In this document: positions 36,169-49,831 of the stretch, one piece after another | Position numbering within the stretch: position 1 is the first letter of the stretch | How the letters are laid out: each line of letters opens with the position of its first letter | NCBI GenBank assembly: GCA_030706745.1 | Contig: JAUZNX010000007.1 | Coordinates: 124,001 to 188,000, forward strand | Length of the DNA stretch: 64,000 bases | From: Bacteroidota bacterium | GTDB lineage: Bacteria; Bacteroidota; Ignavibacteria; Palsa-1295 | Direction: 5' to 3' | Translations under genes and position numbers: made by a program | The notes under the pieces: generated by a model | Database searches by the model: none | What the model was told of the DNA's origin: nothing | Seen by the model: only the letters and a program-made list of their open reading frames with translations

Positions 36169-37497
36169 CTATTCCTTCACAACCTTGACCGTCTGCACCT
36201 CGCCAGTGCCGAGGAAGACGCGGACGAAATAGACGCCCATTGGGAGGCCGCCAACATCGATGATTGCCATGCTCGCCTCCCGTCGTTCGTTGGCAGCAGC
36301 CACACGGCCGAGAACATCAAGCACCTCCACCCGCGACGCGCTCTCCGACGACGACACGGTAAGAGTGCCGCAAGCAAGCGAAACAGAAAGATTCGTTGAA
36401 GGGGGTCCGGGGCTCTCTTTCACACTCGACTCAGGATCGATCTTCTCCCACAGACCATCGAAAAAAGGACCGTAAGCACTACTGTCATATGCTCTCGAAG
36501 CGATCGTGACAGTTTTATTGCTATAGAATCGAGAAAGGCCATTCGCTGGCCAAGATGGGCCACCCTCACGATGCCAAGTGATACCTTCGTCTGTCGACTT
36601 GTACATTCCCGAATCCATCGTCTGAAGGTAGAGGTGTTTCAGTGTTCCTCGAATAATCGGCAAGACAACGGCTGAATCATTCGGGGCGGCAATGAGACTC
36701 CAGTTCATTCCAGAATCATCGCTCCGCCATACTCGAAAACCATCGTGCCCTTCGACTTCGAAATATGTTGACGTGCCCGGAATAGCCAGCGGCTGAAAGG
36801 CATAACCATTTGCATACCGGTTAAACGGCTGATGTCCCATTCGCCATGTCACGCCGCCGTCCGATGTCACAAACACATGGGAGAGACTATCGATCACGGT
36901 GGGAGTGCCCGATGTCGGAAGGTACACTATAGGATTGGTAACGACGATTCCATTCGCGGGAGAAGTAAATGCAAACGCGACGGCACACTTAATTGGCGTA
37001 CGTTCCCAAGTATCGCCCTGATCGTTTGAAACCAGCATCACGGAATCGACGAGTCCAAGAAAGAGCCGGTTTGAGAAATCCGAATAATAAACAGCAAACG
37101 GATCTGGATCACCAGAAATGGGGGTATATAATGGCTTCCAGGAGTATCCCCCGTCCGTTGTTTGAAAACAAAGATAATGTGTGCCAATGGCTTGTGAGAC
37201 GGCCCATCCTAAGAGGGTGTCCTTAAAAACAATGTCATAAGCAAAGTATGGTTCATTCTTGCTGCTCAAACGAAACCAGCTATTTCCACCGTCCGTGGTC
37301 TTCCAAAGATCATCAGCGCATGCGAAGCCAATCCGAGGTGGCCCCGGAAGATCCAAGAAATAAACACAATTAATTTGTTCTTCTCTCTGAGTGACACTGT
37401 CTTTGAAGCTTCCTATCCTTTTCCATTGCCCATCAGCGGGCTGTGCCCAAAAAGCACAGCCCACAATCGCAAGGCAAGCGAAGACTCGTGTCCTCAT
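36169..37497 (-). CDS. Secreted BNR/YCF48-like repeat protein with T9SS-type tail
   Basis: A 442-residue exported protein. Signal peptide ends at PADG. The body is a beta-propeller-like series of Asp-box (BNR) motifs: TTDGGNSW, TTDGGYSW, SNDQGDTW, TSDGGVTW, SDDSGMNW and STDEGITW, the same signature as the YCF48/photosynthesis-assembly-factor group and sialidases. The last 75 residues (VSLACGTLTVSSSESASRVE, VLDVLGRVAA, GGLPMGVYFVRVF) look like a T9SS sorting domain. Its ATG is one base after the stop of the 107-codon ORF upstream. Probably a surface protein; ligand unknown. Confidence 0.82.
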   Translation of the reverse strand: MRTRVFACLAIVGCAFWAQPADGQWKRIGSFKDSVTQREEQINCVYFLDLPGPPRIGFACADDLWKTTDGGNSWFRLSSKNEPYFAYDIVFKDTLLGWAVSQAIGTHYLCFQTTDGGYSWKPLYTPISGDPDPFAVYYSDFSNRLFLGLVDSVMLVSNDQGDTWERTPIKCAVAFAFTSPANGIVVTNPIVYLPTSGTPTVIDSLSHVFVTSDGGVTWRMGHQPFNRYANGYAFQPLAIPGTSTYFEVEGHDGFRVWRSDDSGMNWSLIAAPNDSAVVLPIIRGTLKHLYLQTMDSGMYKSTDEGITWHREGGPSWPANGLSRFYSNKTVTIASRAYDSSAYGPFFDGLWEKIDPESSVKESPGPPSTNLSVSLACGTLTVSSSESASRVEVLDVLGRVAAANERREASMAIIDVGGLPMGVYFVRVFLGTGEVQTVKVVKE

Positions 37498-37498
37498 G

Positions 37499-37822
37499 TC
37501 AGTTTATCACGGAGTAGTTTAAGGTGAGCGCAAGTACCCCAGCGGAAACGTGAATAAAATATGTTCCGGGGGTTGCTGGAGCCGGTATTTGAACGCGGTC
37601 CCAGGAAGATCCGTCAGAAGTGGTCTGAACGGAATTTCCTACCTGATTGCCCATAACATCGAAAACACCAAAATGTTGCGTCCAGTACAAGCACGGATTC
37701 GGCATTGATCCTATGGATCCAACACCACGATCGGCGGACTTTATTAAAACGGACTCTCCTTCGCGCGGGATTAGATTAGAACTCTGGATCATCGAAGACA
37801 GGTAAGGAATTTCCCTGTCCAA
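37499..37822 (-). CDS. Orphan T9SS C-terminal-domain ORF
   Basis: A 107-codon frame with no signal peptide. Its second half, FGVFDVMGNQVGNSVQTTSD then PATPGTYFIHVSAGVLALTL, is a T9SS-type sorting domain without the cargo part that normally precedes it. It may be a remnant of a longer secreted protein truncated at its 5' end when the upstream NtrC-type gene became its neighbour, or a short coupled ORF: its TGA is followed one base later by the ATG of the next gene (TGACATG). I lean toward a remnant. Confidence 0.5.
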   Translation of the reverse strand: MDREIPYLSSMIQSSNLIPREGESVLIKSADRGVGSIGSMPNPCLYWTQHFGVFDVMGNQVGNSVQTTSDGSSWDRVQIPAPATPGTYFIHVSAGVLALTLNYSVIN

Positions 37823-37835
37823 CTGTTTTTACCTT

Positions 37836-37857
37836 ACGAGAGGCAATCTACAAATGG
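37836..37857 (+). repeat. Direct repeat, right copy, at the NtrC-type gene start
   Basis: ACGAGAGGCAATCTACAAAT then GG contains the ribosome binding site GAGAGG and the start codon (37854) of the regulator gene. It matches 36126-36148, about 1.7 kb to the left. Confidence 0.6.
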
Positions 37858-39203
37858 CATCCATTCTTTTCGTCGACGATGAACTTTCAACCCGCGACAA
37901 CTATCGTACAATTCTCGAACACTATGGGCATCAGGTAACGCTCGCTTCTAACGTGCAGGAAGGCGTCAATCTGCTTTCCTCGAATGGAGTGTTTGACCTC
38001 GTTATTACCGATATGCGAATGGGTTCGGAAAGTGGGCTCGACATGCTCAGGCAAGCAAGGACGCTCGCGCCGGAAACCGAGGTCATCGTTCTAACGGGTC
38101 ATGCTCAACTCGAGAACGCTGTCGAGGCGATGAAGCTTGGCGCGGCGGACTATCTCACGAAAGAGACGGACTACAAAGAAATCATGCTGGTCGTCGAGAA
38201 GGCGTTGGAAAAGCGCACGCTCAAGCAAGAGATCGAGCGATTGCGCAAACGGGTCGGCAACGAGTTCTCGTTTCGGAAGATTGTCGGCCAAAGCCCAGCG
38301 ATCCTGCAGCTTCAGGATACATTACGCCGGGTCGCTCCAACGACATCGCGCGTTCTTATAACGGGCGAGTCAGGCACGGGTAAAGAGCTGATTGCGGAAA
38401 CGATTCACACAAATAGTCCCCGCAAGGACGCGCCATTTATCGCCATCAACTGTGGCGCAATTCCACGGGACTTGTTAGAGAGCGAGTTATTCGGTTACGT
38501 TCGAGGTGCGTTCACTGGCGCCGATCGTGATAAGACAGGCCTCTTAGCATCGGCAGATCGTGGGACAGTATTTCTCGATGAGGTTGGTGAGATGTCGCTT
38601 GAGACGCAGGTCAAATTACTGCGGTTCCTCGAACAGGGAGAGATTGCACCCGTCGGAAGCACGAAGACCAGAATCGTGGATGTCCGCGTCATCGCAGCGA
38701 CGAACCGGGACCTCGCGGAGGCGGTCCGCACTCATTCCTTTCGCGAGGACCTGTATTATCGCCTCAAGGTCATTTCGGTTCACCTGCCGCCACTTCGCGA
38801 ACGGAAACAGGACATCCCGTTGCTTGCTGAAGCTCTCCTACGGGAGCTTGCAATGAAAGCCGGACGCAAAGTCTATCGCATCTCGGCAGATGCCATGCGC
38901 GGACTGGCGGACTATGACTGGCCCGGCAACGTACGTGAGCTCAAGAATGTCATCGAGCGCGCTCTCATTTTTGCAGATGGCGATCAGATCGAACTCGAAC
39001 ACCTCCCAGAAGAACTATTTCTGCATCCGGCGATCGCATCTGGCCAGCTTGAGAACGGTGTTGTCCCGCTTGATGAGGTAGAGAAGAAGTATATCCTGGA
39101 CCTGCTCGAACGAAACGGGGGCAACAAACTCCAAACCGCGAAGCAACTCAATATCGCCACCACGACGCTGTACCGCAAACTCAGGATGTACGGGATCGAG
39201 TAG
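37854..39203 (+). CDS. NtrC-family sigma-54-dependent response regulator upstream of kdp
   Basis: A 449-residue activator, paralogous to that at 17568-18947. Receiver with DD at 8-9, phosphoacceptor in LVITDMRMGSESG, VLTGH and YLTKE. AAA+ domain with GESGTGKE, the sigma-54 loop in ELFGYVRGAFTGAD, RGTVFLDEVGEM and [16 protein letters not shown]. Fis-type HTH at the end (AKQLNIATTTLYRKLRMYGI). GAGAGG lies before the ATG. It precedes a small barrel gene, a histidine kinase gene and kdpFABC on the same strand, so it may serve as the response regulator of the kinase and control kdp; no convincing -24/-12 promoter was found. Confidence 0.95.
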   Translation: MASILFVDDELSTRDNYRTILEHYGHQVTLASNVQEGVNLLSSNGVFDLVITDMRMGSESGLDMLRQARTLAPETEVIVLTGHAQLENAVEAMKLGAADYLTKETDYKEIMLVVEKALEKRTLKQEIERLRKRVGNEFSFRKIVGQSPAILQLQDTLRRVAPTTSRVLITGESGTGKELIAETIHTNSPRKDAPFIAINCGAIPRDLLESELFGYVRGAFTGADRDKTGLLASADRGTVFLDEVGEMSLETQVKLLRFLEQGEIAPVGSTKTRIVDVRVIAATNRDLAEAVRTHSFREDLYYRLKVISVHLPPLRERKQDIPLLAEALLRELAMKAGRKVYRISADAMRGLADYDWPGNVRELKNVIERALIFADGDQIELEHLPEELFLHPAIASGQLENGVVPLDEVEKKYILDLLERNGGNKLQTAKQLNIATTTLYRKLRMYGIE

Positions 39204-39320
39204 CAGAATGCTACGGGTCACCGTAGCGAAACGCTATACGCATGCTCGTGGCGGATAGCGAAACAGTGCGAGTTTGTTCGATTATCTGTTCTGGCACCGG
39301 TTGTGTATTCTCTCTCTGCC

Positions 39321-39998
39321 ATGAAAGCACTCGCCATTGCCATCGGGCTCGCCGCAGTATTCCCTAATCTTTGTCGCGCACAGCAGACAATCTTTAACGT
39401 CCCCAGTCAGGACGTGCTGGCACCTGGTTCGGTCTATGCTGAAGTCGATGGATCGTTCCGAACCAATGAACCAAGGTTCGTAGCAATAACGCCGCGTGTC
39501 GTCTTCGGTTACGGATACAATTTTGAAGGGGGTCTCAATCTTCCCGGTTACATCAACATAGGTGATAAGCTTTGGGCGGCGCACATTACGCTGAAACATG
39601 GTCAGGTGCTGGATACGACAGCTCCCTGGACTCTGACGGAAGGTGTCCATCTCTATTTACCGCTGACATCGGGTCGCACCGTGGCCTTTTTCGCGTACGC
39701 GATGACAGGATACAAGCTCGCCACGAAGCTACGTCTTGATGGCGGCGTCTATATCGCAACGGACGCATTCACTGGCATCGGCAATGTGGTCGGGGCGCTC
39801 GGCAGCATCGAGTATGCTCTGAATGATTGGCTCACGCTCGCGCTTGATGCCTACTCGGGACAGAATGCACTGGGATTTGTCACGCCAGGACTCTTCGTCG
39901 GTCCCTTCGGCAAATGGATCCTCTATCCGGCCTACCAAATCTCGAACGTCTCCCGCGATGGCGACAGCTTTCTCGTTGAGATAGGATATAGCTTCTAA
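39321..39998 (+). CDS. Small exported beta-barrel-like protein before the kinase gene
   Basis: A 225-residue exported protein. Signal peptide MKALAIAIGLAAVFPNLCRA ends at AQQ. The mature part, beginning FNVPSQDVLAPGSVYAEVDG, is all beta with a terminal aromatic residue (LVEIGYSF), the usual end of outer-membrane barrels. Size fits an 8- to 10-stranded barrel. I use the ATG at 39321; the frame is open from 39303. It lies between the NtrC-type regulator and the histidine kinase; the ATG at 39999 of the kinase frame directly follows its stop. Possibly an ion pore linked to potassium uptake, but that is a guess from position. Confidence 0.75.
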   Translation: MKALAIAIGLAAVFPNLCRAQQTIFNVPSQDVLAPGSVYAEVDGSFRTNEPRFVAITPRVVFGYGYNFEGGLNLPGYINIGDKLWAAHITLKHGQVLDTTAPWTLTEGVHLYLPLTSGRTVAFFAYAMTGYKLATKLRLDGGVYIATDAFTGIGNVVGALGSIEYALNDWLTLALDAYSGQNALGFVTPGLFVGPFGKWILYPAYQISNVSRDGDSFLVEIGYSF

Positions 39999-40232
39999 AT
40001 GTTCGCGGCAACTCTCAACGGAGCCTTCATTGGCAGCGTCGTACCCGCCGCAATATGGGTCGGACGGGCGAACGATGCCAGAATCCTGCAGCGCGCAAGC
40101 CAGATGCGCCAACAGGCGGCGTTCGCTCGATCTGCGCGGTGGGTCGGTGGAAGTAACGATCTGCTCTTAACTGGGCATCCCGCACATATCATCGGCGCAT
40201 ACCGTAGTTTTGGAGACAATCCAAGACGACCC
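39999..40232 (+). other. Open-frame segment ahead of the kinase start
   Basis: 234 bp between the barrel stop and the likely kinase start (40233). The kinase frame stays open through it from an ATG at 39999, adding 78 residues with no membrane segment or known motif. Either the kinase has an unusual N-terminal extension, or this is a leader. No c-di-AMP (ydaO) riboswitch core was recognised. Confidence 0.4.
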
Positions 40233-41507
40233 ATGGCCAACCGCATCCTGGAACGAGGTCTTCGCATCCGCATTTTGACGGGTTTCTCGCTCGTCATTTT
40301 TCTTACGCTTCTGATTGCGGGGTGGTCATATTACAGCATCACCTCGTTGGGCCGCGTGGCTGAGAACGTATTCATTGCGAACTACCGCAGCATCCAATAC
40401 GCCCACAGGATGGAGCACGCCGTCGACGCCCTCCTCGACTCGCGTCCTGGCTCTGCCGCGATCCGAAGTACAGATGCCGCCTTCCATGAGGCGCTGGATT
40501 TGGAATTTCATAACATTACAGAGCGAGGCGAACTGGAAGCGGCGCGAACGATTGAAGCCTCTTATAAGGAATTCTATACTGCTTTGATCTCCGGTGGCAC
40601 GTCCAATCTCACGGCCATGAGCAGCGAGGTCATGGCCGCCATCGAGCGAATGCTCCGTCTCAACGAGCGCGCGATGTTCGCCCGGTCGGACGCGATGATC
40701 GAGAAAGCGAATATCGCTCGGACCTCTACACTCGTCATCACTGGATTGCTCGTTAGTATTGCGATCCTGCTTGCCGTTGCCGTCTCAAGGAGAAGTCTCG
40801 CCGAGTTTCAGGAGTTGGACCGTGCCAAAAGCAATTTCGTGGCAACGGCGGCGCACGAACTGAAGAACCCGCTCAGTGCCATCAAGACAACGAGCGCACT
40901 ATTGCGAGATGGGATTGCCGGGCCAATCAGCGAGAAGCAAGCCGAACTCGTCACCAGTATCCAAACCGAATCCAATCGGTTGTTGAGTCTTGTCGGTGAA
41001 TTGCTCGACCTTGCGAAGCTTGAAACAGGAACACTGGAACTTCAGCGCTCTGTGGTCGATGCCGATACCCTGATCGAGAGCGCCATCATGCCGATTGCCA
41101 TGCACGCAGATCGTGCGAACGTTGGCATCGACATCGTCGTGATGCCGGATGTACCTGAGCTATCAGTCGATCCGAACAAGATGGCATGGGCGATAACGAA
41201 CTTGCTGTCGAACGCCATTCAGTACTCTCCGCGTGGCGCATCAGTCGAGATCCGAGCCAGTGCAATTGAGCGCGAAGTCTGGCTATCCGTGACCGATCAT
41301 GGCAAAGGCATCCCGGAAAAAGATATCGAACGCATCTTCGAGAAGTTCGCACAGGTCGAGGCCGGCGCAATGGGCGCTGGCTCCGGCTCGGGACTTGGAC
41401 TTGCTATCGCGCGAGAGATCGTCCAAGCCCACGGTGGTCGCATTTGGGCCACGAGCAGTCTTGGCCAGGGATCGACATTCACGATTGCGCTGCCACTCAC
41501 AGTTTAA
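40233..41507 (+). CDS. Membrane histidine kinase upstream of kdp
   Basis: A 424-residue kinase. Helices at about 14-35 (ILTGFSLVIFLTLLIAGWSY) and 165-187 enclose a roughly 130-residue helical sensor. The second helix passes directly to the kinase core: HisKA with VATAAHELKNPLSAIKTTSA (phosphoacceptor His), then HATPase with NLLSNAIQYSPRG, VTDHGKGIPEKD and GSGLGLAIAREIVQAHGG. No HAMP or PAS is obvious. The ATG at 40233 gives a standard kinase N-terminus. It lies directly before the kdp genes while the local KdpD lacks a kinase, so it may be the functional kinase for this locus, with the NtrC-type regulator upstream. Confidence 0.88.
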   Translation: MANRILERGLRIRILTGFSLVIFLTLLIAGWSYYSITSLGRVAENVFIANYRSIQYAHRMEHAVDALLDSRPGSAAIRSTDAAFHEALDLEFHNITERGELEAARTIEASYKEFYTALISGGTSNLTAMSSEVMAAIERMLRLNERAMFARSDAMIEKANIARTSTLVITGLLVSIAILLAVAVSRRSLAEFQELDRAKSNFVATAAHELKNPLSAIKTTSALLRDGIAGPISEKQAELVTSIQTESNRLLSLVGELLDLAKLETGTLELQRSVVDADTLIESAIMPIAMHADRANVGIDIVVMPDVPELSVDPNKMAWAITNLLSNAIQYSPRGASVEIRASAIEREVWLSVTDHGKGIPEKDIERIFEKFAQVEAGAMGAGSGSGLGLAIAREIVQAHGGRIWATSSLGQGSTFTIALPLTV

Positions 41508-41518
41508 TCACACAACAC

Positions 41519-41602
41519 ATGGAAGATCTCCTATACGTTGCCATCATCATCGCCTTCTTCGCGATTTCCATCGCGTTCCAGGCTTATTGCGACAGGATAT
41601 AA
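41519..41602 (+). CDS. 27-residue single-helix peptide before kdpF
   Basis: MEDLLYVAIIIAFFAISIAF then QAYCDRI: one membrane helix with an acidic start and a short basic cytoplasmic-type tail ending CDRI. It lies 11 bp after the kinase gene and 4 bp before kdpF. Similar tiny ORFs with a C-D/E-R-L/I ending occur in front of kdpF in some bacteria, so this is likely a real accessory subunit of the Kdp complex. No function is established here. Confidence 0.6.
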   Translation: MEDLLYVAIIIAFFAISIAFQAYCDRI

Positions 41603-41606
41603 CATC

Positions 41607-41690
41607 ATGAGCGGAATTATACTTCTCGGCCTCGTCATCGCGGTCATCGCGTACCTCATGTATGCGTTGCTCTATCCTGAAAAATTCTAA
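41607..41690 (+). CDS. kdpF: KdpF small subunit of K+-transporting ATPase
   Basis: A 27-residue single-helix peptide, MSGIILLGLVIAVIAYLMYA then LLYPEKF, matching KdpF (hydrophobic helix ending YALLYPEKF). KdpF stabilises the KdpABC complex in the inner membrane. It lies 9 bp before kdpA, in the canonical order. Confidence 0.9.
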   Translation: MSGIILLGLVIAVIAYLMYALLYPEKF

Positions 41691-41699
41691 CACACTGCC

Positions 41700-43427
41700 A
41701 TGACTGCCAACGGCATCTTACAACTCGTAGCCTATCTCGTGGTGCTCATTCTCATCACGAAACCGATGGGGGTATTTCTTACGAAAGTCTTTCGCGGAGA
41801 GCGAACGATCCTGACGCCCTTCGTGGGCGGCCTGGAACGTCTGATCTACCGGCTCTGCGGCATTCATCCAGAGACCGAAATGAAATGGACAGCATATTCC
41901 GGCGCCATGCTGATATTTAGCGCCGTGACCGGGCTTGTACTCTATGGGATGCTGCGGTTTCAGCATGTGCTTCCGTGGAATCCGCAAGGTTTCGGCGCCG
42001 TCGCGCCCGATCTCAGTTTCGGAACCGCGATGAGCTTCACCACCAATACCAACTGGCAGGCATACAGCGGCGAAACGACAATGAGTTACTTCACGCAGAT
42101 GGCTGGCCTTGCCTTCCACAATTTCGCTTCGGCTGCGGTCGGCATCGCAATCGCTTTGGCTGTCGTGCGAGGTCTGGTTCGTTCGTCAGTACAAACAATC
42201 GGCAACTTCTGGGTCGATCTCGTTCGCTGCACGCTTTATGTGTTACTGCCGATGTCGATTGTCGCTACCATCATCTTCATCGCAACCGGGATGATCCAGA
42301 ACCTCTCGCCATACGTAGTGGCCACAACGCTCGAAGGCGCCAAACAAACCATTGCGATGGGACCAGTCGCATCCCAAGAGGCAATCAAGATTCTTGGCAC
42401 GAACGGTGGCGGGTTTTTCAATGCAAATTCCGCGCACCCATTTGAAAATCCTTCGGCGCTGACCAACTTCATTCAAGTTATCCTCATCTTTTCCATTGGC
42501 TCCGGTCTGACCTATATGTTCGGTCGCATGGCAAAAGACCAAAAGCAAGGCTGGGCAATTTGGGGTGCAATGACGTTCCTCTTTCTGGCTGGGCTGATGA
42601 CATGCTACACCGCAGAACAATCTGGAAACCCGATCACGGAAAAGCTCGGCATCCAGCGCACAGCAACCGACACACAGCCTGGCGGCAACATGGAAGGGAA
42701 AGAAGTCCGCTTTGGGATTGCGCAGAGCACCCTCTTCGCAACTGTAACGACCGATGCATCCTGCGGTGCGGTGAACTCGATGCACGAGAGTTACACGCCG
42801 ATCGGCGGGATGGTCACGCTCTTCAATATCTTGCTTGGCGAAGTGATCTTTGGTGGTGTCGGAGCAGGGCTGTATGGGATGATGATCTTCGTGATTCTTT
42901 CGGTCTTCATCGCAGGCCTCATGGTTGGACGAACGCCTGAGTATCTCGGCAAGAAAATCGAATCCAAAGAGGTGAAGCTCTCGATGCTCGCGCTTCTCTC
43001 GATGGCATTCTGTATCCTCGGTTTTACGGCATGGGCGGTAGTCAATCCGGCGGCGCTCAAGAGCCTTGCCAACGCTGGGCCTCATGGACTCACCGAAATC
43101 CTTTACGCTTTCGCTTCGGCGACAGGGAACAACGGGTCGGCCTTTGCGGGACTAAGTGCCAACACACAGTTCTATAATCTCACGCAAGGGCTATCCGAAC
43201 TGGTCGGTCGCTTCTTCGTGATTGTGCCGATGCTTGCTGTTGCCGGAAGCATGGCGCGCAAGACGGCGGTCGCACCTTCATCAGGCACATTCCTGACCAA
43301 TACCCCACTTTTTAGCACCTTGCTTGTGATGGTCATTATTATCGTCGCTGGACTTACCTTCTTTCCCGCGCTATCGCTCGGTCCTATTCTGGAGCACCTG
43401 CTTATGGGTGCCGGCAAATTATTCTAA
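41700..43427 (+). CDS. kdpA: KdpA, potassium-binding channel-like subunit
   Basis: A 575-residue inner-membrane protein of the usual family length (about 560). It resembles four fused channel-like M1-P-M2 units; selectivity-filter-like loops are TTNTNWQAYSGE, GTNGGGFFNANSAHPFENPS, TTDASCGAVNSMHESYTPIG and ATGNNGSAFAGLSANT. It takes up K+ from the periplasm in the high-affinity KdpFABC P-type ATPase. It lies 9 bp after kdpF and 12 bp before kdpB. Confidence 0.97.
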   Translation: MTANGILQLVAYLVVLILITKPMGVFLTKVFRGERTILTPFVGGLERLIYRLCGIHPETEMKWTAYSGAMLIFSAVTGLVLYGMLRFQHVLPWNPQGFGAVAPDLSFGTAMSFTTNTNWQAYSGETTMSYFTQMAGLAFHNFASAAVGIAIALAVVRGLVRSSVQTIGNFWVDLVRCTLYVLLPMSIVATIIFIATGMIQNLSPYVVATTLEGAKQTIAMGPVASQEAIKILGTNGGGFFNANSAHPFENPSALTNFIQVILIFSIGSGLTYMFGRMAKDQKQGWAIWGAMTFLFLAGLMTCYTAEQSGNPITEKLGIQRTATDTQPGGNMEGKEVRFGIAQSTLFATVTTDASCGAVNSMHESYTPIGGMVTLFNILLGEVIFGGVGAGLYGMMIFVILSVFIAGLMVGRTPEYLGKKIESKEVKLSMLALLSMAFCILGFTAWAVVNPAALKSLANAGPHGLTEILYAFASATGNNGSAFAGLSANTQFYNLTQGLSELVGRFFVIVPMLAVAGSMARKTAVAPSSGTFLTNTPLFSTLLVMVIIIVAGLTFFPALSLGPILEHLLMGAGKLF

Positions 43428-43439
43428 TCGTCACCGGAC

Positions 43440-45482
43440 ATGGCAAAACACGAAATCCATCAACAGAAGAAGCTCTTCGACGCGCCGATTGTCAAACGCG
43501 CCAGCTTCGATGCGCTGAAGAAACTCGACCCGCGCATTCTATACAAGAATCCGGTGATGTTCGTCGTCGAGATCGGCGCGGTGCTCACGACCTACTATTG
43601 GGTTCTCGACTTGGATAGGGCCGTGCATGGCGATGCCTTGTTCTCAGGTCTGATTTCGGCGTGGCTGTGGTTCACGGTGCTCTTTGCAACGTTTGCCGAA
43701 GCCATGGCCGAAGGGCGCGGCAAGGCTCAAGCTGACGCACTTCGCAAGACGAAGACCGAAACCGTTGCAAAGCAAATAGGCAAGGATGGCAATACCGCAC
43801 AAGTCAGCGCCACCATGCTCCGTAAAGGCGATGTGGTGCTGGTCGAGGCCGGTGATGTCATTCCCGGCGATGGTGATGCGATCGAAGGCATCGCCTCGAT
43901 TGACGAGTCCGCGATCACCGGCGAGTCCGCACCGGTCATTCGTGAAAGCGGCGGCGACCGGTGCGCAGTCACTGGCGGCACGCGCGTCATTTCGGATTGG
44001 CTCAAAGTCAAAATCACCTCGAATCCGGGCGAGACGTTCATCGACCGGATGATTTCGCTCGTCGAAGGTGCTTCACGCCAGAAGACACCGAACGAAATTG
44101 CGCTCACGATCCTGCTCGCGGGCATGACGATCATATTCTTGATCGCCGTCGTCGCACTGAGTTTTTTGGGGCAGTACTTATCGACCACGATCTCCGTCGT
44201 CGTTTTGATCTCGCTTCTCGTGTGTCTGATCCCTACGACCATCGGCGGCTTGCTGTCAGCGATTGGTATTGCGGGTATCGACCGAGTGTTGCAACGCAAT
44301 GTGCTTGCCATGTCGGGTCGCGCGGTCGAAGCCGCCGGCGATGTGAATACACTTCTTCTGGATAAAACGGGGACGATCACCATTGGCAACCGGATGGCAA
44401 CGGAGTTTCTGCCCGCACCTGGCATTACGCTCGAATATCTCTCACAAACGATCCACTTATCCAGTCTTGCGGATGAGACTCCCGAGGGCCGCAGCATTGT
44501 CGCGCTCGCACAACAGACTGTCAAGGAGTTACCAGAGGACTTGTTCAAGGCCGATAAGACTTTCATTCCGTTTTCCGCACATACGCGCATGAGTGGCGTG
44601 GATATTGGCGGTCGTGCGATTCGCAAAGGCGCAGTTGATGCGATCTCAAAACTTGCTGGCCTGAATGGAATGCCAGCCGAACTGACCGTGCAGGTCCAGC
44701 GAATTGCCACTTCAGGCGGAACGCCCCTCGCCGTGGCGGAGGATGGAAATATCCTTGGTGTGATCCATCTTAAGGACATTGTGAAGCAAGGGATGCGCGA
44801 GCGGTTCGATCAGTTGCGCACCATGGGAATCAAGACGGTGATGATTACCGGCGATAATCCACTGACCGCCAAAGCGATTGCGATGGAGGCCGGCGTAGAT
44901 GATTTCCTCGCCGAGGCCACGCCCGAGACCAAGATGGCCCTTATTCGCAAAGAGCAAGCGAGTGGCAAGCTTGTTGCCATGACTGGCGATGGCACAAACG
45001 ATGCACCGGCGCTGGCGCAAGCCGATGTCGGCGTCGCAATGAACACCGGCACCATGGCCGCAAAAGAAGCGGCTAATATGGTCGATCTCGATAGCAACCC
45101 GACCAAACTCATTGAGGTCGTCGAGATCGGCAAACAACTGCTCATGACTCGTGGAGCCCTGACCACGTTCAGTATTGCTAACGATGTCGCGAAATACTTC
45201 GCGATCATTCCAGCGATGTTCATGGCGGCGTTCCCCGAACTGCGCGCGCTGAACGTCATGGGATTGCACTCTCCAGAAAGTGCGATACTGTCAGCGGTCA
45301 TATTCAATGCGCTTATCATCATAGCTCTTGTGCCACTTGCGCTCAAAGGCATTAAATACCGTCCGCTTGGCGCGGCAGCGGTGCTCCGGCGCAACATTCT
45401 GGTCTATGGCGTAGGTGGTGTTATCATCCCATTCGTCGGCATCAAGGCGATCGACCTCATTGTATCGGCATTCGGAATTTGA
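43440..45482 (+). CDS. kdpB: KdpB, P-type ATPase catalytic subunit
   Basis: A 680-residue type IA P-type ATPase. [13 protein letters not shown] (actuator domain TGES), phosphorylation motif [13 protein letters not shown] with catalytic Asp near 307, nucleotide-binding KGAVDAI, hinge [20 protein letters not shown]. Membrane motif [17 protein letters not shown] takes the place of the CPC/PEGL site, as in KdpB. It powers potassium uptake through KdpA. All catalytic residues appear intact. Confidence 0.97.
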
Positions 45483-45493
45483 AGGTTACGACT

Positions 45494-46072
45494 ATGATAA
45501 AGACAATCATCACATCTACCATCATGACTGTCATCCTGACGGTGCTCGTTGGCATCGTCTATCCGCTGGCGATGACGGGAATCGCTCAACTCGTGTTTCC
45601 GAAGCAGGCGAATGGCAGTCTCATCGAACGCGATGGCAAAGTGATTGGCTCGGAATTGATCGGGCAGCAGTTCGCAGACGCGAAGTTCTTCCGATCCCGA
45701 CCGTCGGCTGCCGGCACTGGCTATGATGCGGCAAACTCTGGCGCGACCAATCTCGGGCCGACCAGCAAGGCACTCATGGATCGCCTGACTCACGATCGCG
45801 ATTCGCTTCGCAAACTCTATCCTGAGCTTGCTGGTGCGTTACCCGCCGACATGATTACCAGTTCGGCTTCGGGGCTCGATCCGGACATTACCATTGCGAA
45901 TGCCATGCTGCAGGCGAAGATCGTGGCGCGAACGAATAATCTTCAAATGGATGCCGTTGAAGCACTTGTGAGGTCGCACATTCAGGGCCGCGATCTGGGA
46001 TTTTTAGGCGAGCCACGAGTCAACGTACTTGCACTCAATCTCGATCTGCTGAAGCATCGCAAGCAACCGTAA
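45494..46072 (+). CDS. kdpC: KdpC, accessory subunit of K+-transporting ATPase
   Basis: A 192-residue protein with one N-terminal membrane helix (TSTIMTVILTVLVGIVYPLA, family motif YPL.MTGIAQ) and a periplasmic domain containing GSELIGQQFADAKFFRSRPS, GYDAANSGATNLGPTSK and LVTSSASGLDPDIT-like ITSSASGLDPDIT. KdpC assists the catalytic subunit, affecting nucleotide affinity. It begins 11 bp after the kdpB stop and ends one base before the GTG of the KdpD-like gene. An in-frame TTG at 45479 is ignored. Confidence 0.95.
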   Translation: MIKTIITSTIMTVILTVLVGIVYPLAMTGIAQLVFPKQANGSLIERDGKVIGSELIGQQFADAKFFRSRPSAAGTGYDAANSGATNLGPTSKALMDRLTHDRDSLRKLYPELAGALPADMITSSASGLDPDITIANAMLQAKIVARTNNLQMDAVEALVRSHIQGRDLGFLGEPRVNVLALNLDLLKHRKQP

Positions 46073-46073
46073 C

Positions 46074-47795
46074 GTGACCGAATCTCTATCAGTCGAAGAT
46101 CTCCTGCACGAGATCAAATATGCGAAGGAAAGTCCGCTCCGAATCTATCTCGGCGCGGCACCGGGCGTTGGAAAAACGTATCGGATGCTCCAGGACGGGA
46201 ATGCGCTGAAGCGCCGCGGCGTCGATGTGGTCGTCGGTTATGTCGAGCCGCATGAGCGCCCTGACACGCTCAGCCAGGTCGGTGAGCTCGAAGTCATTCC
46301 TCCGAAAACTTACGAGTATAAGGGTGTGTCGCTCCGGGAAATGGATACTGATGCAGTCATCGCCAGGAAGCCCGAAGTCGTCCTCGTTGACGAACTTGCA
46401 CACACCAATGCTCCAGGTACGAAGCACGTAAAGCGATACGAGGACATCGAGGATATTCTCGCAGCAGGAATTGCGGTCTTCAGCACCTGCAATATCCAGC
46501 ATTTGGAGAGTGTCCACGATATGGTGGAACGGATGACCGGCGTGGAAGTAAAGGAACGCGTGCCCGACACATTCTTTAGTCTTGCGCGCGAAATGATTAT
46601 CGTCGATGTAACCCCCGACGAACTCCGCGAACGTCTCGAACAAGGCAAGATTTATCCAAAAGAGCGCATCGAGCGGTCGCTCAAGAATTTTTTCACTCGC
46701 AGCAATATTAGCATGTTGCGAGAGTTGGCATTACGGGAACTCGCCAACGATGTTGAGCAAAAGGATAAAGAAGCGCGGCACGAAACGAATACGCCGGGCA
46801 CTGCGGCGAGCGGCGAAAAGGTCCTTGTGGCAATACCGGCGACATCAGCCGCTCAAAAGCTTGTTCGCTATGGCTCCCGCATGGCCGGTCGTATGAACGC
46901 GAAATGGATTGCCGCCTTCGTCGAAGCGGAGGATACGAAACCCACGGAGCAAGAGGCCAACACATTGCGAGAAGCCTTCGCGCTGGCTCGCTCGCTTGGC
47001 GCGACGGTCGTTCAATTGCGGGGTCGCTCAACCGCCGAAACGCTTATCCATTTTGCCAAGGAAGAAGGAATAACACAATTCGTGATCGGCGCGACACAAC
47101 GCGCTTGGTGGAAGCGACTCATTTCGCGCTCAGTGGTCGGCGATTTGCTGAAGCAGGTGGGCGAGGTCGGTGTCTCTATCGTGCCGATGAGGAAAGAGGA
47201 CTCAGATGGCGACTTACTTCCCGCACCGCCATCGGTGCTACCACCGCACGACGAACGACTTCGACTGTCGGACTTCCTCCGGCCTCAATTTATTGTTGCC
47301 AATCTTCGAAATGTCGAAACGGTGGAACAAGCAATCTCAGTGCTTATCGATCAACTGATCCAGCAGGCGCCCGGCCTCTCGCAGTATCGGACGGAGATTC
47401 TGGATATGATTATGCGGCGCGAACGGCTGATGAGCACATTCCTCGATACCGGTATTGCCATTCCTCACTCGGCGGGTTACGAAGCGATCACGGACATTCA
47501 TGCCATGATGGCGCTTACTCCGCAAGGCGTCATGTCGTTGGGGCGCGACGAGAAAGCCTACATCGTCCTCCTCTTTCTTTCACCTGCGGTCGGCCGTGCA
47601 AATCACCTCAAATTTCTCGCTGCCATCGCGCGAGTCTTCATCGACAAGACTACTACGCGTGAAATCGCGAACCTGGATTCAGGTCTGGCGGCGTATGAGT
47701 TCATCGCAAAACTGGAGTCTCTAGGACGAGCTGGCGGCAACTATCACCCACCTTCGCAGGAGCAAGAACGGAAGAACGGATCGGCTGATCATTGA
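46074..47795 (+). CDS. kdpD: KdpD sensor-domain protein with USP and PTS EIIA-like domains, no kinase
   Basis: A 573-residue soluble protein starting at GTG, one base after kdpC. Residues about 20-230 are the KdpD N-terminal domain: Walker A GAAPGVGKT, GYVEPHERPDT, VVLVDELAHTNAPGTKH and CNIQHLESVHD. Residues about 245-372 are a universal-stress-type domain (EKVLVAIPATSAAQKLVRYG to VSIVPM). Instead of the usual four helices, GAF and histidine kinase, residues about 395-540 resemble a PTS EIIA type-2 (fructose/nitrogen) domain: VEQAISVLIDQLI, MRRERLMSTFLDTGIAIPHS with the active-site-type His in IPHS, and LLFLSPAVGRANHLKFLAAI. It cannot autophosphorylate like normal KdpD. Truncated KdpD proteins are known in cyanobacteria; the EIIA fusion is unusual. 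Confidence 0.9.
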   Translation: MTESLSVEDLLHEIKYAKESPLRIYLGAAPGVGKTYRMLQDGNALKRRGVDVVVGYVEPHERPDTLSQVGELEVIPPKTYEYKGVSLREMDTDAVIARKPEVVLVDELAHTNAPGTKHVKRYEDIEDILAAGIAVFSTCNIQHLESVHDMVERMTGVEVKERVPDTFFSLAREMIIVDVTPDELRERLEQGKIYPKERIERSLKNFFTRSNISMLRELALRELANDVEQKDKEARHETNTPGTAASGEKVLVAIPATSAAQKLVRYGSRMAGRMNAKWIAAFVEAEDTKPTEQEANTLREAFALARSLGATVVQLRGRSTAETLIHFAKEEGITQFVIGATQRAWWKRLISRSVVGDLLKQVGEVGVSIVPMRKEDSDGDLLPAPPSVLPPHDERLRLSDFLRPQFIVANLRNVETVEQAISVLIDQLIQQAPGLSQYRTEILDMIMRRERLMSTFLDTGIAIPHSAGYEAITDIHAMMALTPQGVMSLGRDEKAYIVLLFLSPAVGRANHLKFLAAIARVFIDKTTTREIANLDSGLAAYEFIAKLESLGRAGGNYHPPSQEQERKNGSADH

Positions 47796-48034
47796 AGCCA
47801 AGCTCTCAAGCTGCCAGAAACGACGGATCTTAAGATTATTAAACTCTATGTCCCAGTACAGTCGGCCCAGAGGCCCATTGCCGACGCTCAGGGCACTTGT
47901 TTCTGGGGTGTGTGGATCAGATCGTGGCTCCTTAACCGATCCCCGCGATCCAAGCATTTCCAAGCAGGTCACTTATTTATCCCGTACCATTGTACTGAGA
48001 GGGTGTAACCTTTTGCCTTCTCGCGGGTCTTCTT

Positions 48035-49831
48035 ATGAGTATGAAGCAACGTGCCCTGAGACGGTCGGTGGGTTTGATAGTCCTGATAGCACTCCTTTTT
48101 GTAGGAGGGGAAGCTCATTCTCAAAACACGCCATTCAGTAGCCCCGCGCTCGATTCGAATTGCTATTTCCCGCAGTTCGGTGTGCCGGGCGAGATCGATA
48201 CGATTTATGGCGCGGTGTACGGTCAGGGGCTGGGAGGCAATCTGATCAAAAACCTGGGGCCAAGTCCAGACGGCAGCCCGGGTAACATCATTGTCGGCGA
48301 TCTGGACCGAGTCAATCACGACAGCATCTCCGGCACCTACTACCAGGCAATGACGGGGTCTGGATTCAATCTGCACAACCTCAGCGGCAAGCGGATGATT
48401 CTCACGGACCAGCAAATCGGGAGCAAACCCATCTTTGCCCACCTCCGGACAGGCAAGACGCTCGATCTCTTCACAGGCGCCCAGATATTTTGGGCTAATG
48501 ATGCGGGAAATTACGATTCCGCGCGGGTCACAACCTTGGGGACGTACGTTCAAGGAATAGCCAATGAGGAGCGTCCAATCATTCCAGCATACATTGCCCA
48601 CCTCACAAGCGACACGATCGATGATATTCTCCTGATAGGTTACATTCCATTTGCGGATGCCTCGAAAGACACCGTCTTCTGCCTCCTTTTCAAAGGTGGC
48701 GCCGCTCTTGCCGCCAAGGACACTGCGTGTGAGGATACGACGGCGGTCGTGGGCCCTTTGCAGATGGGGCACGATGGCGGTGCACTGCAAGCAGATTACA
48801 GAGGCACTGGCCGAGATGATCTGATGGTCGGGGACTATTATAACGACAGCAGCGGGGCAATTCGATGGACTTACTGCTATTTCCGAAACGATCCGCCGTT
48901 CGCTCTTGAGCGATTCGCCAAGGCTATTGTGCGAGATACTCTGATGGTCTCCTGGGAGTTGCCAAACGGGGTAGAGGCAGGACCTGCCTTCTCCATGCGC
49001 TTGCTGCCAAAGACGGCAGGCGATTCTTCCCTGGACCTACTGATGGATGTTGGAACACACTCGAACATATACAGTGATGATTCGATTGTGGTCCTTCGTG
49101 GCGGACCTGACTTTGGCTCGCGTCGCATCACGATCGACAGCGCAGCATTCGAGATCCGTAATCCGAAGTATCTTGATGCGAGGTTCTATTTCAACTACTA
49201 TTGGCCCTCCTTCCACCAATTTATGTTCATGGATGCGGGCGACATGACGGGGACGGGGAATCACGTGCTCTATCTCAATGCGGACAACGATGCACACGTC
49301 ACGTTCGATCACTTCTACATTACTGGTAAAGCGCTGGATGAGAAAACGGATATGTTCGTTGCTGGCGGCGGAGGTCTCGACGCCGATACGCTGACGGCTG
49401 ACGCCGATAAGTACGGTGACATTGTCTTTTCAGATCCGAGCTACACGAGCGACTCCGACCTCGTGAATTACGGGAAGCAAGGGGCCGGAACGCTCCGGCT
49501 CTATCATGGCTCAAAGGACATCCCCGTTCATCTCAATCCGCGCTGGGCAGGGGTCAAACAAGCTACGTCTATCGCTTCCGCAACGCTCAGCCTCTCGCCG
49601 AATCCCGCGCAAACGAGCACGGTCGCGGATATGGTCTGGCCGGTATCCGAGGCAGTCACGCTCACGATCCGGAATATCTTAGGCGCAGCCGTACTCACGA
49701 AAGCCTTCCGGCTTGAAGCTGGAGAATCAGAATTGCACTTGTCGCTCGGGATCCTGGCTCCCGGAGTGTACTACGTTAGCATCGAAGGGTCAGCCGGTGA
49801 GGCGCGAGCAAGATTCGCGATCGTCCGGTAG
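48035..49831 (+). CDS. Large secreted FG-GAP-like protein with T9SS-type tail
   Basis: A 598-residue exported protein. The signal peptide (RSVGLIVLIALLFVGGEAHS) is cut near HSQ. The body has repeated beta segments with DxxGTGxxDL-type motifs (ADYRGTGRDDLMVGDYYND, DAGDMTGTGNHVLYLNADND, ADKYGDIVFSDPSY), characteristic of FG-GAP/VCBS propellers that bind calcium. The last 80 residues (LSLSPNPAQTSTVADMVWPV, NILGAAVLTKAFRL, APGVYYVSIEG) are a T9SS sorting domain. It follows kdpD after a 239-bp gap with no recognised feature. Probably a surface adhesin or binding protein. Confidence 0.82.
   Translation: MSMKQRALRRSVGLIVLIALLFVGGEAHSQNTPFSSPALDSNCYFPQFGVPGEIDTIYGAVYGQGLGGNLIKNLGPSPDGSPGNIIVGDLDRVNHDSISGTYYQAMTGSGFNLHNLSGKRMILTDQQIGSKPIFAHLRTGKTLDLFTGAQIFWANDAGNYDSARVTTLGTYVQGIANEERPIIPAYIAHLTSDTIDDILLIGYIPFADASKDTVFCLLFKGGAALAAKDTACEDTTAVVGPLQMGHDGGALQADYRGTGRDDLMVGDYYNDSSGAIRWTYCYFRNDPPFALERFAKAIVRDTLMVSWELPNGVEAGPAFSMRLLPKTAGDSSLDLLMDVGTHSNIYSDDSIVVLRGGPDFGSRRITIDSAAFEIRNPKYLDARFYFNYYWPSFHQFMFMDAGDMTGTGNHVLYLNADNDAHVTFDHFYITGKALDEKTDMFVAGGGGLDADTLTADADKYGDIVFSDPSYTSDSDLVNYGKQGAGTLRLYHGSKDIPVHLNPRWAGVKQATSIASATLSLSPNPAQTSTVADMVWPVSEAVTLTIRNILGAAVLTKAFRLEAGESELHLSLGILAPGVYYVSIEGSAGEARARFAIVR

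What the first reader, a model, noticed from the sequence alone, without database searches (positions are those of the whole stretch)
46074..47795. KdpD homologue with the kinase half replaced by a PTS EIIA-like domain
The KdpD ATPase-like sensor domain and the USP domain are followed by a type-2 EIIA-like domain with GIAIPHS, and the membrane helices, GAF, HisKA and HATPase are missing. Kinase-less KdpD proteins are known, but this fusion could couple potassium sensing (or c-di-AMP binding by USP) to phosphotransfer from a PTS such as PTS-Ntr, which in proteobacteria does influence K+ transport.
Basis: partly seen in the sequence, partly recalled or inferred. Interest (0 to 1): 0.65.

Follow-up and report, generated by a model that had tools for sequence, protein, structure and literature searches.

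The report
Potassium-pump kinase fused to PTS domain
The gene encodes a regulator of bacterial potassium uptake whose pump-silencing kinase is fused to a phosphate-relay (PTS) domain, a conserved and apparently undescribed arrangement that could tie potassium import directly to the cell's energy state.

Summary
The 573-aa protein at 46074-47795 carries KdpD (3e-91), Usp (1e-6) and PTS_EIIA_2 (9e-15) domains and follows kdpFABC. It is not a one-off: 89 collected fusions (some redundant) come from Kapabacteria-like bacteria, Chlorobiaceae, Hydrogenedentota, Verrucomicrobia, Lentisphaerota, Fibrobacterota, Aminicenantes and Desulfobacteraceae. The EIIA active-site His is present in 89/89 and the second His in 88/89. 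Every fusion genome checked has Enzyme I and, where tested, HPr, except one 88%-complete MAG without EI. The window's genome has no EIIC or EIIA-Man, so its PTS looks regulatory.

"Kinase-less" is misleading: the KdpD domain is itself the atypical serine kinase that inhibits KdpB (Silberberg 2024). Its key residues are conserved, and the target serine is present. A separate histidine kinase is encoded just upstream. In Chlorobiaceae the fusion also sits in RR-kimA-HK-fusion operons. Four genomes without KdpA keep it there.

c-di-AMP control is unlikely: Usp has the E. coli-type motif, and Chlorobiaceae lack diadenylate cyclase.

Best reading: a K+-uptake serine kinase gated in cis by PTS phosphorylation. 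This is inferred, not shown. No description of the fusion was found in the open literature searched. It is a new variant of known parts.

The parts
46074..47795 (+). kdpD-usp-EIIA fusion gene (573 aa)
   Evidence: the ORF listing; Pfam/NCBIfam; full-length orthologues
46131..46754 (+). KdpD domain (atypical serine kinase, residues 20-227)
   Evidence: PF02702 3.1e-91; Foldseek 2r8r 7.6e-23; catalytic residues aligned to E. coli KdpD
46152..46178 (+). Walker A-like motif G-X5-GKT (G27-T35)
   Evidence: aligned to E. coli KdpD G36/K37/T38; invariant in 89 fusions
46389..46394 (+). Walker B Asp106-Glu107 (E. coli D109/E110)
   Evidence: invariant in 89 fusions
46815..47156 (+). Usp domain (residues 248-361), with E. 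coli-type RXXXR-X8-W motif
   Evidence: PF00582 1.1e-6; motif scan; motif definitions PMC4686210
47274..47708 (+). PTS_EIIA_2 domain (residues 401-545)
   Evidence: PF00359 8.8e-15, also whole-genome search; profile match to EIIA-Ntr 1a6j
47466..47468 (+). His465, predicted phospho-acceptor (GIAIPHS)
   Evidence: translation; aligned with the IPH His of E. coli PtsN; 89/89 fusions
47604..47606 (+). His511, second active-site His
   Evidence: translation; 88/89 fusions
41607..41690 (+). kdpF (27 aa)
   Evidence: MSGIILLGLVIAVIAYLMYALLYPEKF; position before kdpA
41700..43427 (+). kdpA
   Evidence: PF03814 2e-238, TIGR00680 above cut-off
43440..45482 (+). kdpB, with the TGES target serine Ser163 at 43926-43928
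   Evidence: TIGR01497 above cut-off; aligned to E. coli KdpB S162
45479..46072 (+). kdpC
   Evidence: PF02669 1.5e-68
39999..41507 (+). separate histidine kinase (HisKA + HATPase_c) upstream of kdpF
   Evidence: homologues at the same place in relatives
37854..39203 (+). NtrC-type sigma-54 response regulator, likely partner of the histidine kinase
   Evidence: RR-HK pair conserved beside the fusion in many loci

Best explanation
The protein is a post-translational brake on K+ uptake whose serine kinase is gated in cis by the PTS. Proposed chain: PEP -> EI -> HPr -> His465 of the EIIA domain. [quoted passage not shown] Transcription of the operon is left to the separate HK / sigma-54 RR pair. 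In Chlorobiaceae the same regulator also serves the KimA potassium importer. Shown: the domains, catalytic residues, target serine, operon, conservation, and presence of EI/HPr. Known from E. coli and Deinococcus: the KdpD domain phosphorylates KdpB. Inferred: phosphorylation of this EIIA and its control of the kinase. The sign is unknown; by analogy with EIIA-Ntr, I guess that dephospho-EIIA favours K+ uptake.
For: Significant EIIA domain with intact active site; His465 89/89 and His511 88/89. Kinase residues G-X5-GKT, D106/E107, R187 and target KdpB Ser163 all present; GKT, D, E and R invariant in 89 fusions. KdpD domain shown to be a KdpB serine kinase, also from short KdpDs lacking the HK (PMC11018627). 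Fusion directly downstream of kdpC in 50 loci over about 8 phyla. EI in all 13 genome contigs genomes searched and in all other fusion genomes tested except one 88%-complete MAG; HPr in all fusion genomes searched. No EIIC or EIIA-Man in the window's genome. EIIA under strong purifying selection: nonsynonymous 0.10-0.21 versus synonymous 0.72-0.81 differences per site. EIIA-Ntr acts on KdpD in trans in E. coli, Rhizobium, Sinorhizobium and P. putida (PMC9239096, PMC13104625). K+ or c-di-AMP input is otherwise missing: no TM/GAF, E. coli-type Usp, no DAC in Chlorobiaceae.
Against: No phosphotransfer was measured. In proteobacteria the EIIA-Ntr contacts the transmitter or GAF domains, which are absent here. 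Kapabacterial genomes do have a diadenylate cyclase. Four Chlorobiaceae keep the fusion without KdpA, so KdpB cannot be its only target. The domain contact EIIA-KdpD was not modelled with confidence (pTM 0.42).
Confidence: 0.5

Rival explanations
1. The EIIA domain acts on the neighbouring histidine kinase, as PtsN acts on the transmitter domain of E. coli KdpD: it binds the HK encoded in the same operon and tunes transcription, while the KdpD domain works on its own.
For: PtsN binds KdpD transmitter or GAF in proteobacteria (PMC9239096, PMC13104625). An HK is encoded beside the fusion in the window and in most loci, and is the immediate upstream gene in kimA operons. The fusion is kept with HK-RR when kdpABC is absent.
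Against: The kinase residues of the KdpD domain stay invariant, including in kimA-only operons, so that domain is not merely a tether. No interaction evidence.
Confidence: 0.25
2. The EIIA domain is a phosphorylation-dependent docking module for K+ transporters (KdpB, KimA) or other partners and does not regulate the kinase domain itself.
For: The same fusion occurs with two unrelated transporters, KdpABC and a KimA homologue.
Against: Dedicated covalent linkage to a kinase in many phyla suggests kinase control; there is no direct test.
Confidence: 0.13
3. Ordinary c-di-AMP-controlled short KdpD with an EIIA domain of little importance.
For: Short KdpD of Deinococcus is c-di-AMP-activated (PMC11018627); the window genome and other kapabacterial fusion genomes have a DAC.
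Against: No fusion has the SXS-X20-FTAXY motif; Chlorobiaceae have no DAC; active-site His universally kept; purifying selection on EIIA.
Confidence: 0.07
4. Signal runs the other way: the KdpD kinase domain modifies or controls the EIIA/PTS so that K+ status regulates carbon metabolism.
For: Nothing in the anatomy fixes the direction. The window's genome has HprK and a second, stand-alone EIIA, so the PTS has other outputs.
Against: Operon position after the pump and conserved KdpB target serine point to the pump as output.
Confidence: 0.05

Closest known systems
Short, non-histidine-kinase KdpD (KdpD-Usp; D. geothermalis KdpD; NCBIfam NF038185)
   Same: KdpD serine-kinase domain plus Usp, no TM/GAF/HK, gene directly after kdpC, separate TCS elsewhere
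   Different: Adds a C-terminal EIIA domain; scores 404 against the NF038185 cut-off of 550; no c-di-AMP signature in Usp
EIIA-Ntr (PtsN) acting on KdpD in trans (E. coli, R. leguminosarum, S. fredii, P. putida)
   Same: An EIIA of the Ntr/Fru superfamily controls Kdp through KdpD; best solved-structure match is EIIA-Ntr 1a6j
   Different: Here EIIA is covalently fused, and the HK transmitter and GAF domains it binds in proteobacteria are absent; EIIA too divergent for the PtsN equivalog (40 versus 139 bits)
E. coli KdpD tandem serine/histidine kinase
   Same: Walker A/B serine kinase residues and KdpB TGES target serine
   Different: No membrane sensor and no HK half; HK on a separate gene; E. 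coli adenine-contact W39 is Tyr here
KimA (APC/KUP-type K+ importer, c-di-AMP-controlled in B. subtilis)
   Same: Chlorobiaceae neighbour of the fusion is a KimA homologue (6e-65 to 6s3k)
   Different: In Chlorobiaceae there is no diadenylate cyclase, and kimA is in an RR-kimA-HK-(kdpABC)-fusion operon

Membership tests
KdpD sensor domain family (PF02702) | score above gathering cut-off | tested here: met
   304.9 bits versus 26.1
KdpD atypical serine kinase (ASK) | G-X5-GKT Walker A, Walker B D/E, adenine pair W/R | tested here: met
   GKT, D106/E107 and R187 present; W39 is Tyr36, still aromatic; 89/89 for GKT, D, E, R
KdpD atypical serine kinase (ASK) | phosphorylates KdpB Ser in TGES | not testable with these tools
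   target Ser163 present in the operon's KdpB
KdpD-like non-kinase potassium sensor (NF038185) | curated cut-off 550 bits | tested here: not met
   404.4 bits over residues 6-370
Full-length KdpD sensor histidine kinase (PRK10490) | TM, GAF, HisKA, HATPase | tested here: not met
   318 versus 1123 bits; no HisKA/HATPase in the protein
PTS EIIA type 2 (PF00359) | score above cut-off and active-site His | tested here: met
   55.4 versus 27 bits; His465 and His511
PTS EIIA type 2 (PF00359) | accepts phosphate from HPr | not testable with these tools
   HPr and EI encoded in the genome
EIIA-Ntr / PtsN equivalog (TIGR01419) | curated cut-off 138.7 bits | tested here: not met
   40.2 bits
PTS-Ntr | PtsP (GAF-EI) and NPr upstream | tested here: inconclusive
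   plain HPr next to an EI frame of about 620 aa, no sign of an extra GAF domain by length; GAF not searched
c-di-AMP-binding KdpD Usp (S. aureus type) | SXS-X20-FTAXY motif | tested here: not met
   RXXXR-X8-W type instead in all fusions

The most novel reading that the evidence does not exclude
A transporter-independent K+-uptake regulator: a PTS-gated serine kinase that silences two structurally unrelated importers, the P-type pump KdpFABC and the APC/KUP-type KimA. It would replace both K+ sensing and c-di-AMP as the input, so that PEP/pyruvate balance directly sets K+ import in green sulfur bacteria and Kapabacteria-like lineages.
Probability: 0.25. Interest if true: 0.8.

Novelty: new variant of a known kind. 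Interest (0 to 1): 0.6.

Why it matters
How PTS state controls potassium transport is a long-running and partly contradictory question in proteobacteria, where EIIA-Ntr acts through loose contacts with KdpD, TrkA and YcgO. A covalent KdpD-EIIA fusion is a natural 'Rosetta stone' for that link. Because it lacks the histidine-kinase half, it isolates one output (the serine kinase) and makes the question testable with four or five purified proteins. [quoted passage not shown] The kimA operons suggest the KdpD kinase domain may have targets other than KdpB.

Tried and rejected
Artefact or chance: rejected. Dedicated second HPr in Chlorobiaceae as partner: a second divergent HPr occurs in 15 fusion genomes and in none of the 10 non-fusion Chlorobiaceae, but it sits in a sulfur/cysteine operon and in at least one genome lacks the His, so not accepted. 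Single versus repeated origin: the KdpD-domain tree puts the kapabacterial and the Chlorobi/other fusions apart, but one origin is not rejected (AU p 0.08), and the EIIA tree is unresolved with a long kapabacterial branch. Left open. dN/dS as a ratio: synonymous sites saturated, only the raw contrast is usable. ydaO riboswitch or other Rfam element in 37000-49000: none. Sigma-54 promoter before kdp: no match in 41490-41720, and window-wide matches near chance. Fusion in viral contigs: none found. Literature on a KdpD-EIIA fusion: none found in eight searches of open papers; subscription journals not covered, and domain databases probably list the architecture.

Full report
OBSERVATION. The ORF at 46074-47795 encodes 573 aa. 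It begins one base after the kdpC stop, in an operon HK (39999-41507) - small hydrophobic ORF (41519-41602) - kdpF (41607-41690) - kdpA - kdpB - kdpC - fusion. Pfam finds KdpD (20-227, 3e-91), Usp (248-361, 1e-6) and PTS_EIIA_2 (401-545, 9e-15, twice the gathering score). Profile search of solved structures gives the KdpD N-terminus 2r8r, the KdpD Usp 7ji4 and EIIA-Ntr 1a6j for the three parts, and Foldseek of the model agrees. His465 aligns with the active His of PtsN and His511 with its second His.

HOW COMMON. In 296 genomes of the phylum, full-length homologues occur in the same genus (82% identity) and in one family, Chlorobiaceae-like (35-39%). Other genomes with KdpD have a roughly 380-aa short form or a roughly 900-aa histidine kinase. 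A scan of GTDB genomes with the Usp-EIIA half found fusions in Kapabacteria-like MAGs, Chlorobiaceae including Chlorobium ferrooxidans and Pelodictyon luteolum, two Hydrogenedentota, and one each of Fibrobacterota, Lentisphaerota, Verrucomicrobiota, Aminicenantes and Desulfobacteraceae. MAG binning could mislead for the singletons. Over 89 aligned fusions (with some redundancy), His465 is present in all and His511 in 88. Between the window and four orthologues, the EIIA part changes at 0.10-0.21 of nonsynonymous and 0.72-0.81 of synonymous sites, so it is under purifying selection.

THE KdpD DOMAIN IS A KINASE. Silberberg et al. [quoted passage not shown] Short KdpD-Usp proteins keep this activity, and in Deinococcus it is triggered by c-di-AMP. 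The residues needed are here: G-X5-GKT, D106/E107 and R187; W39 is Tyr36. The KdpB of this operon has TGES with Ser163. GKT, D, E and R are invariant in 89 fusions. That paper's text does not mention EIIA. What is missing is the classical histidine-kinase half, and a separate HK plus an NtrC-type regulator lie upstream.

WHAT IS THE INPUT. The fusion has no TM or GAF K+ sensor. Its Usp domain has the E. coli-type RXXXR-X8-W motif and not the SXS-X20-FTAXY motif needed for c-di-AMP binding in S. aureus (PMC4686210). Diadenylate cyclase is absent from all Chlorobiaceae tested (8 with the fusion; 25 with the fusion plus C. ferrooxidans; two non-fusion genomes), although present in the kapabacterial genomes and in most other phyla with the fusion. 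A caution: several Bacteroidia with plain short KdpD also lack it. The PTS chain is available. HPr and EI are adjacent in the window's genome, EI is present in every fusion genome tested except one of 88% completeness, and HPr in every fusion genome tested. The window's genome has no PF02378 EIIC, no EIIA-Man, an HPr kinase and one other EIIA, whose second His is Arg. By contrast, five Bacteroidia with plain short KdpD have neither EI nor HPr. So the EIIA domain is the natural candidate for the input.

LINK TO A SECOND TRANSPORTER. In 50 loci the fusion directly follows kdpC. In 13 Chlorobiaceae loci it follows the histidine kinase in an RR-kimA-HK-fusion operon, and KimA is seen in all 11 of these with enough upstream DNA. 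The transporter matches B. subtilis KimA at 6e-65. In seven loci the order is kimA-HK-kdpA-kdpB(-kdpC)-fusion, so the two forms differ by gain or loss of kdpABC, and the tree needs at least four such changes. KdpA is found in 31 of 35 fusion genomes. The four without it (G048, G165, G094, G177) all keep the fusion in the kimA operon. None of ten Chlorobiaceae without the fusion has KdpA. Hence the fusion cannot be only a KdpB kinase: it either acts on KimA too, or works through the HK.

MECHANISM. Best supported: PEP-EI-HPr-EIIA phosphorylation gates the serine kinase in cis, which silences K+ import. This joins two established facts, the KdpD serine kinase and the control of KdpD by EIIA-Ntr in trans (PMC9239096, PMC13104625). 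The phosphorylation of His465 and its effect on the kinase are inference, and the sign is unknown. The main rival is that EIIA acts on the neighbouring HK, as PtsN does on the KdpD transmitter.

NOVELTY. The parts are known; the fusion, its taxonomic spread and its kimA operons were not found in the open literature searched. It is a new variant of a known kind. Whether it arose once or twice is open.

Noticed in passing
window 41519-41602 (+): A 27-aa hydrophobic ORF (MEDLLYVAIIIAFFAISIAFQAYCDRI) lies between the histidine kinase and kdpF; possibly another small Kdp-associated membrane peptide.
   Followed up: no
L119-L124, L133, L134 (Chlorobiaceae): A second, divergent HPr-like protein in an apparent sulfur/cysteine operon, next to a conserved ~217-aa protein; the active His is lost in at least one (MINKRLTVKSPAGLNILALEK). 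Found in 15 fusion-bearing Chlorobiaceae and none of 10 without the fusion.
   Followed up: partly
L001 / L118, G000:C10:133230-133655: The genome's only other EIIA is a stand-alone one with the AIPHG site but Arg in place of the second His.
   Followed up: no
L188-L191, L041, L058, L039, L081: Chlorobiaceae carry RR-kimA-HK-(kdpABC)-fusion operons, and four genomes lost or never had kdpA but keep the fusion.
   Followed up: yes
L193 (G164:C12:105841-107514): A same-genus genome has a second kdpA close to and divergent from the first kdp operon.
   Followed up: no
kimA-operon fusions, residue equivalent to window Tyr36: The adenine-contact aromatic (W39 of E. coli KdpD) is Leu in 11 of 19 kimA-operon copies; may change nucleotide binding.
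   Followed up: no
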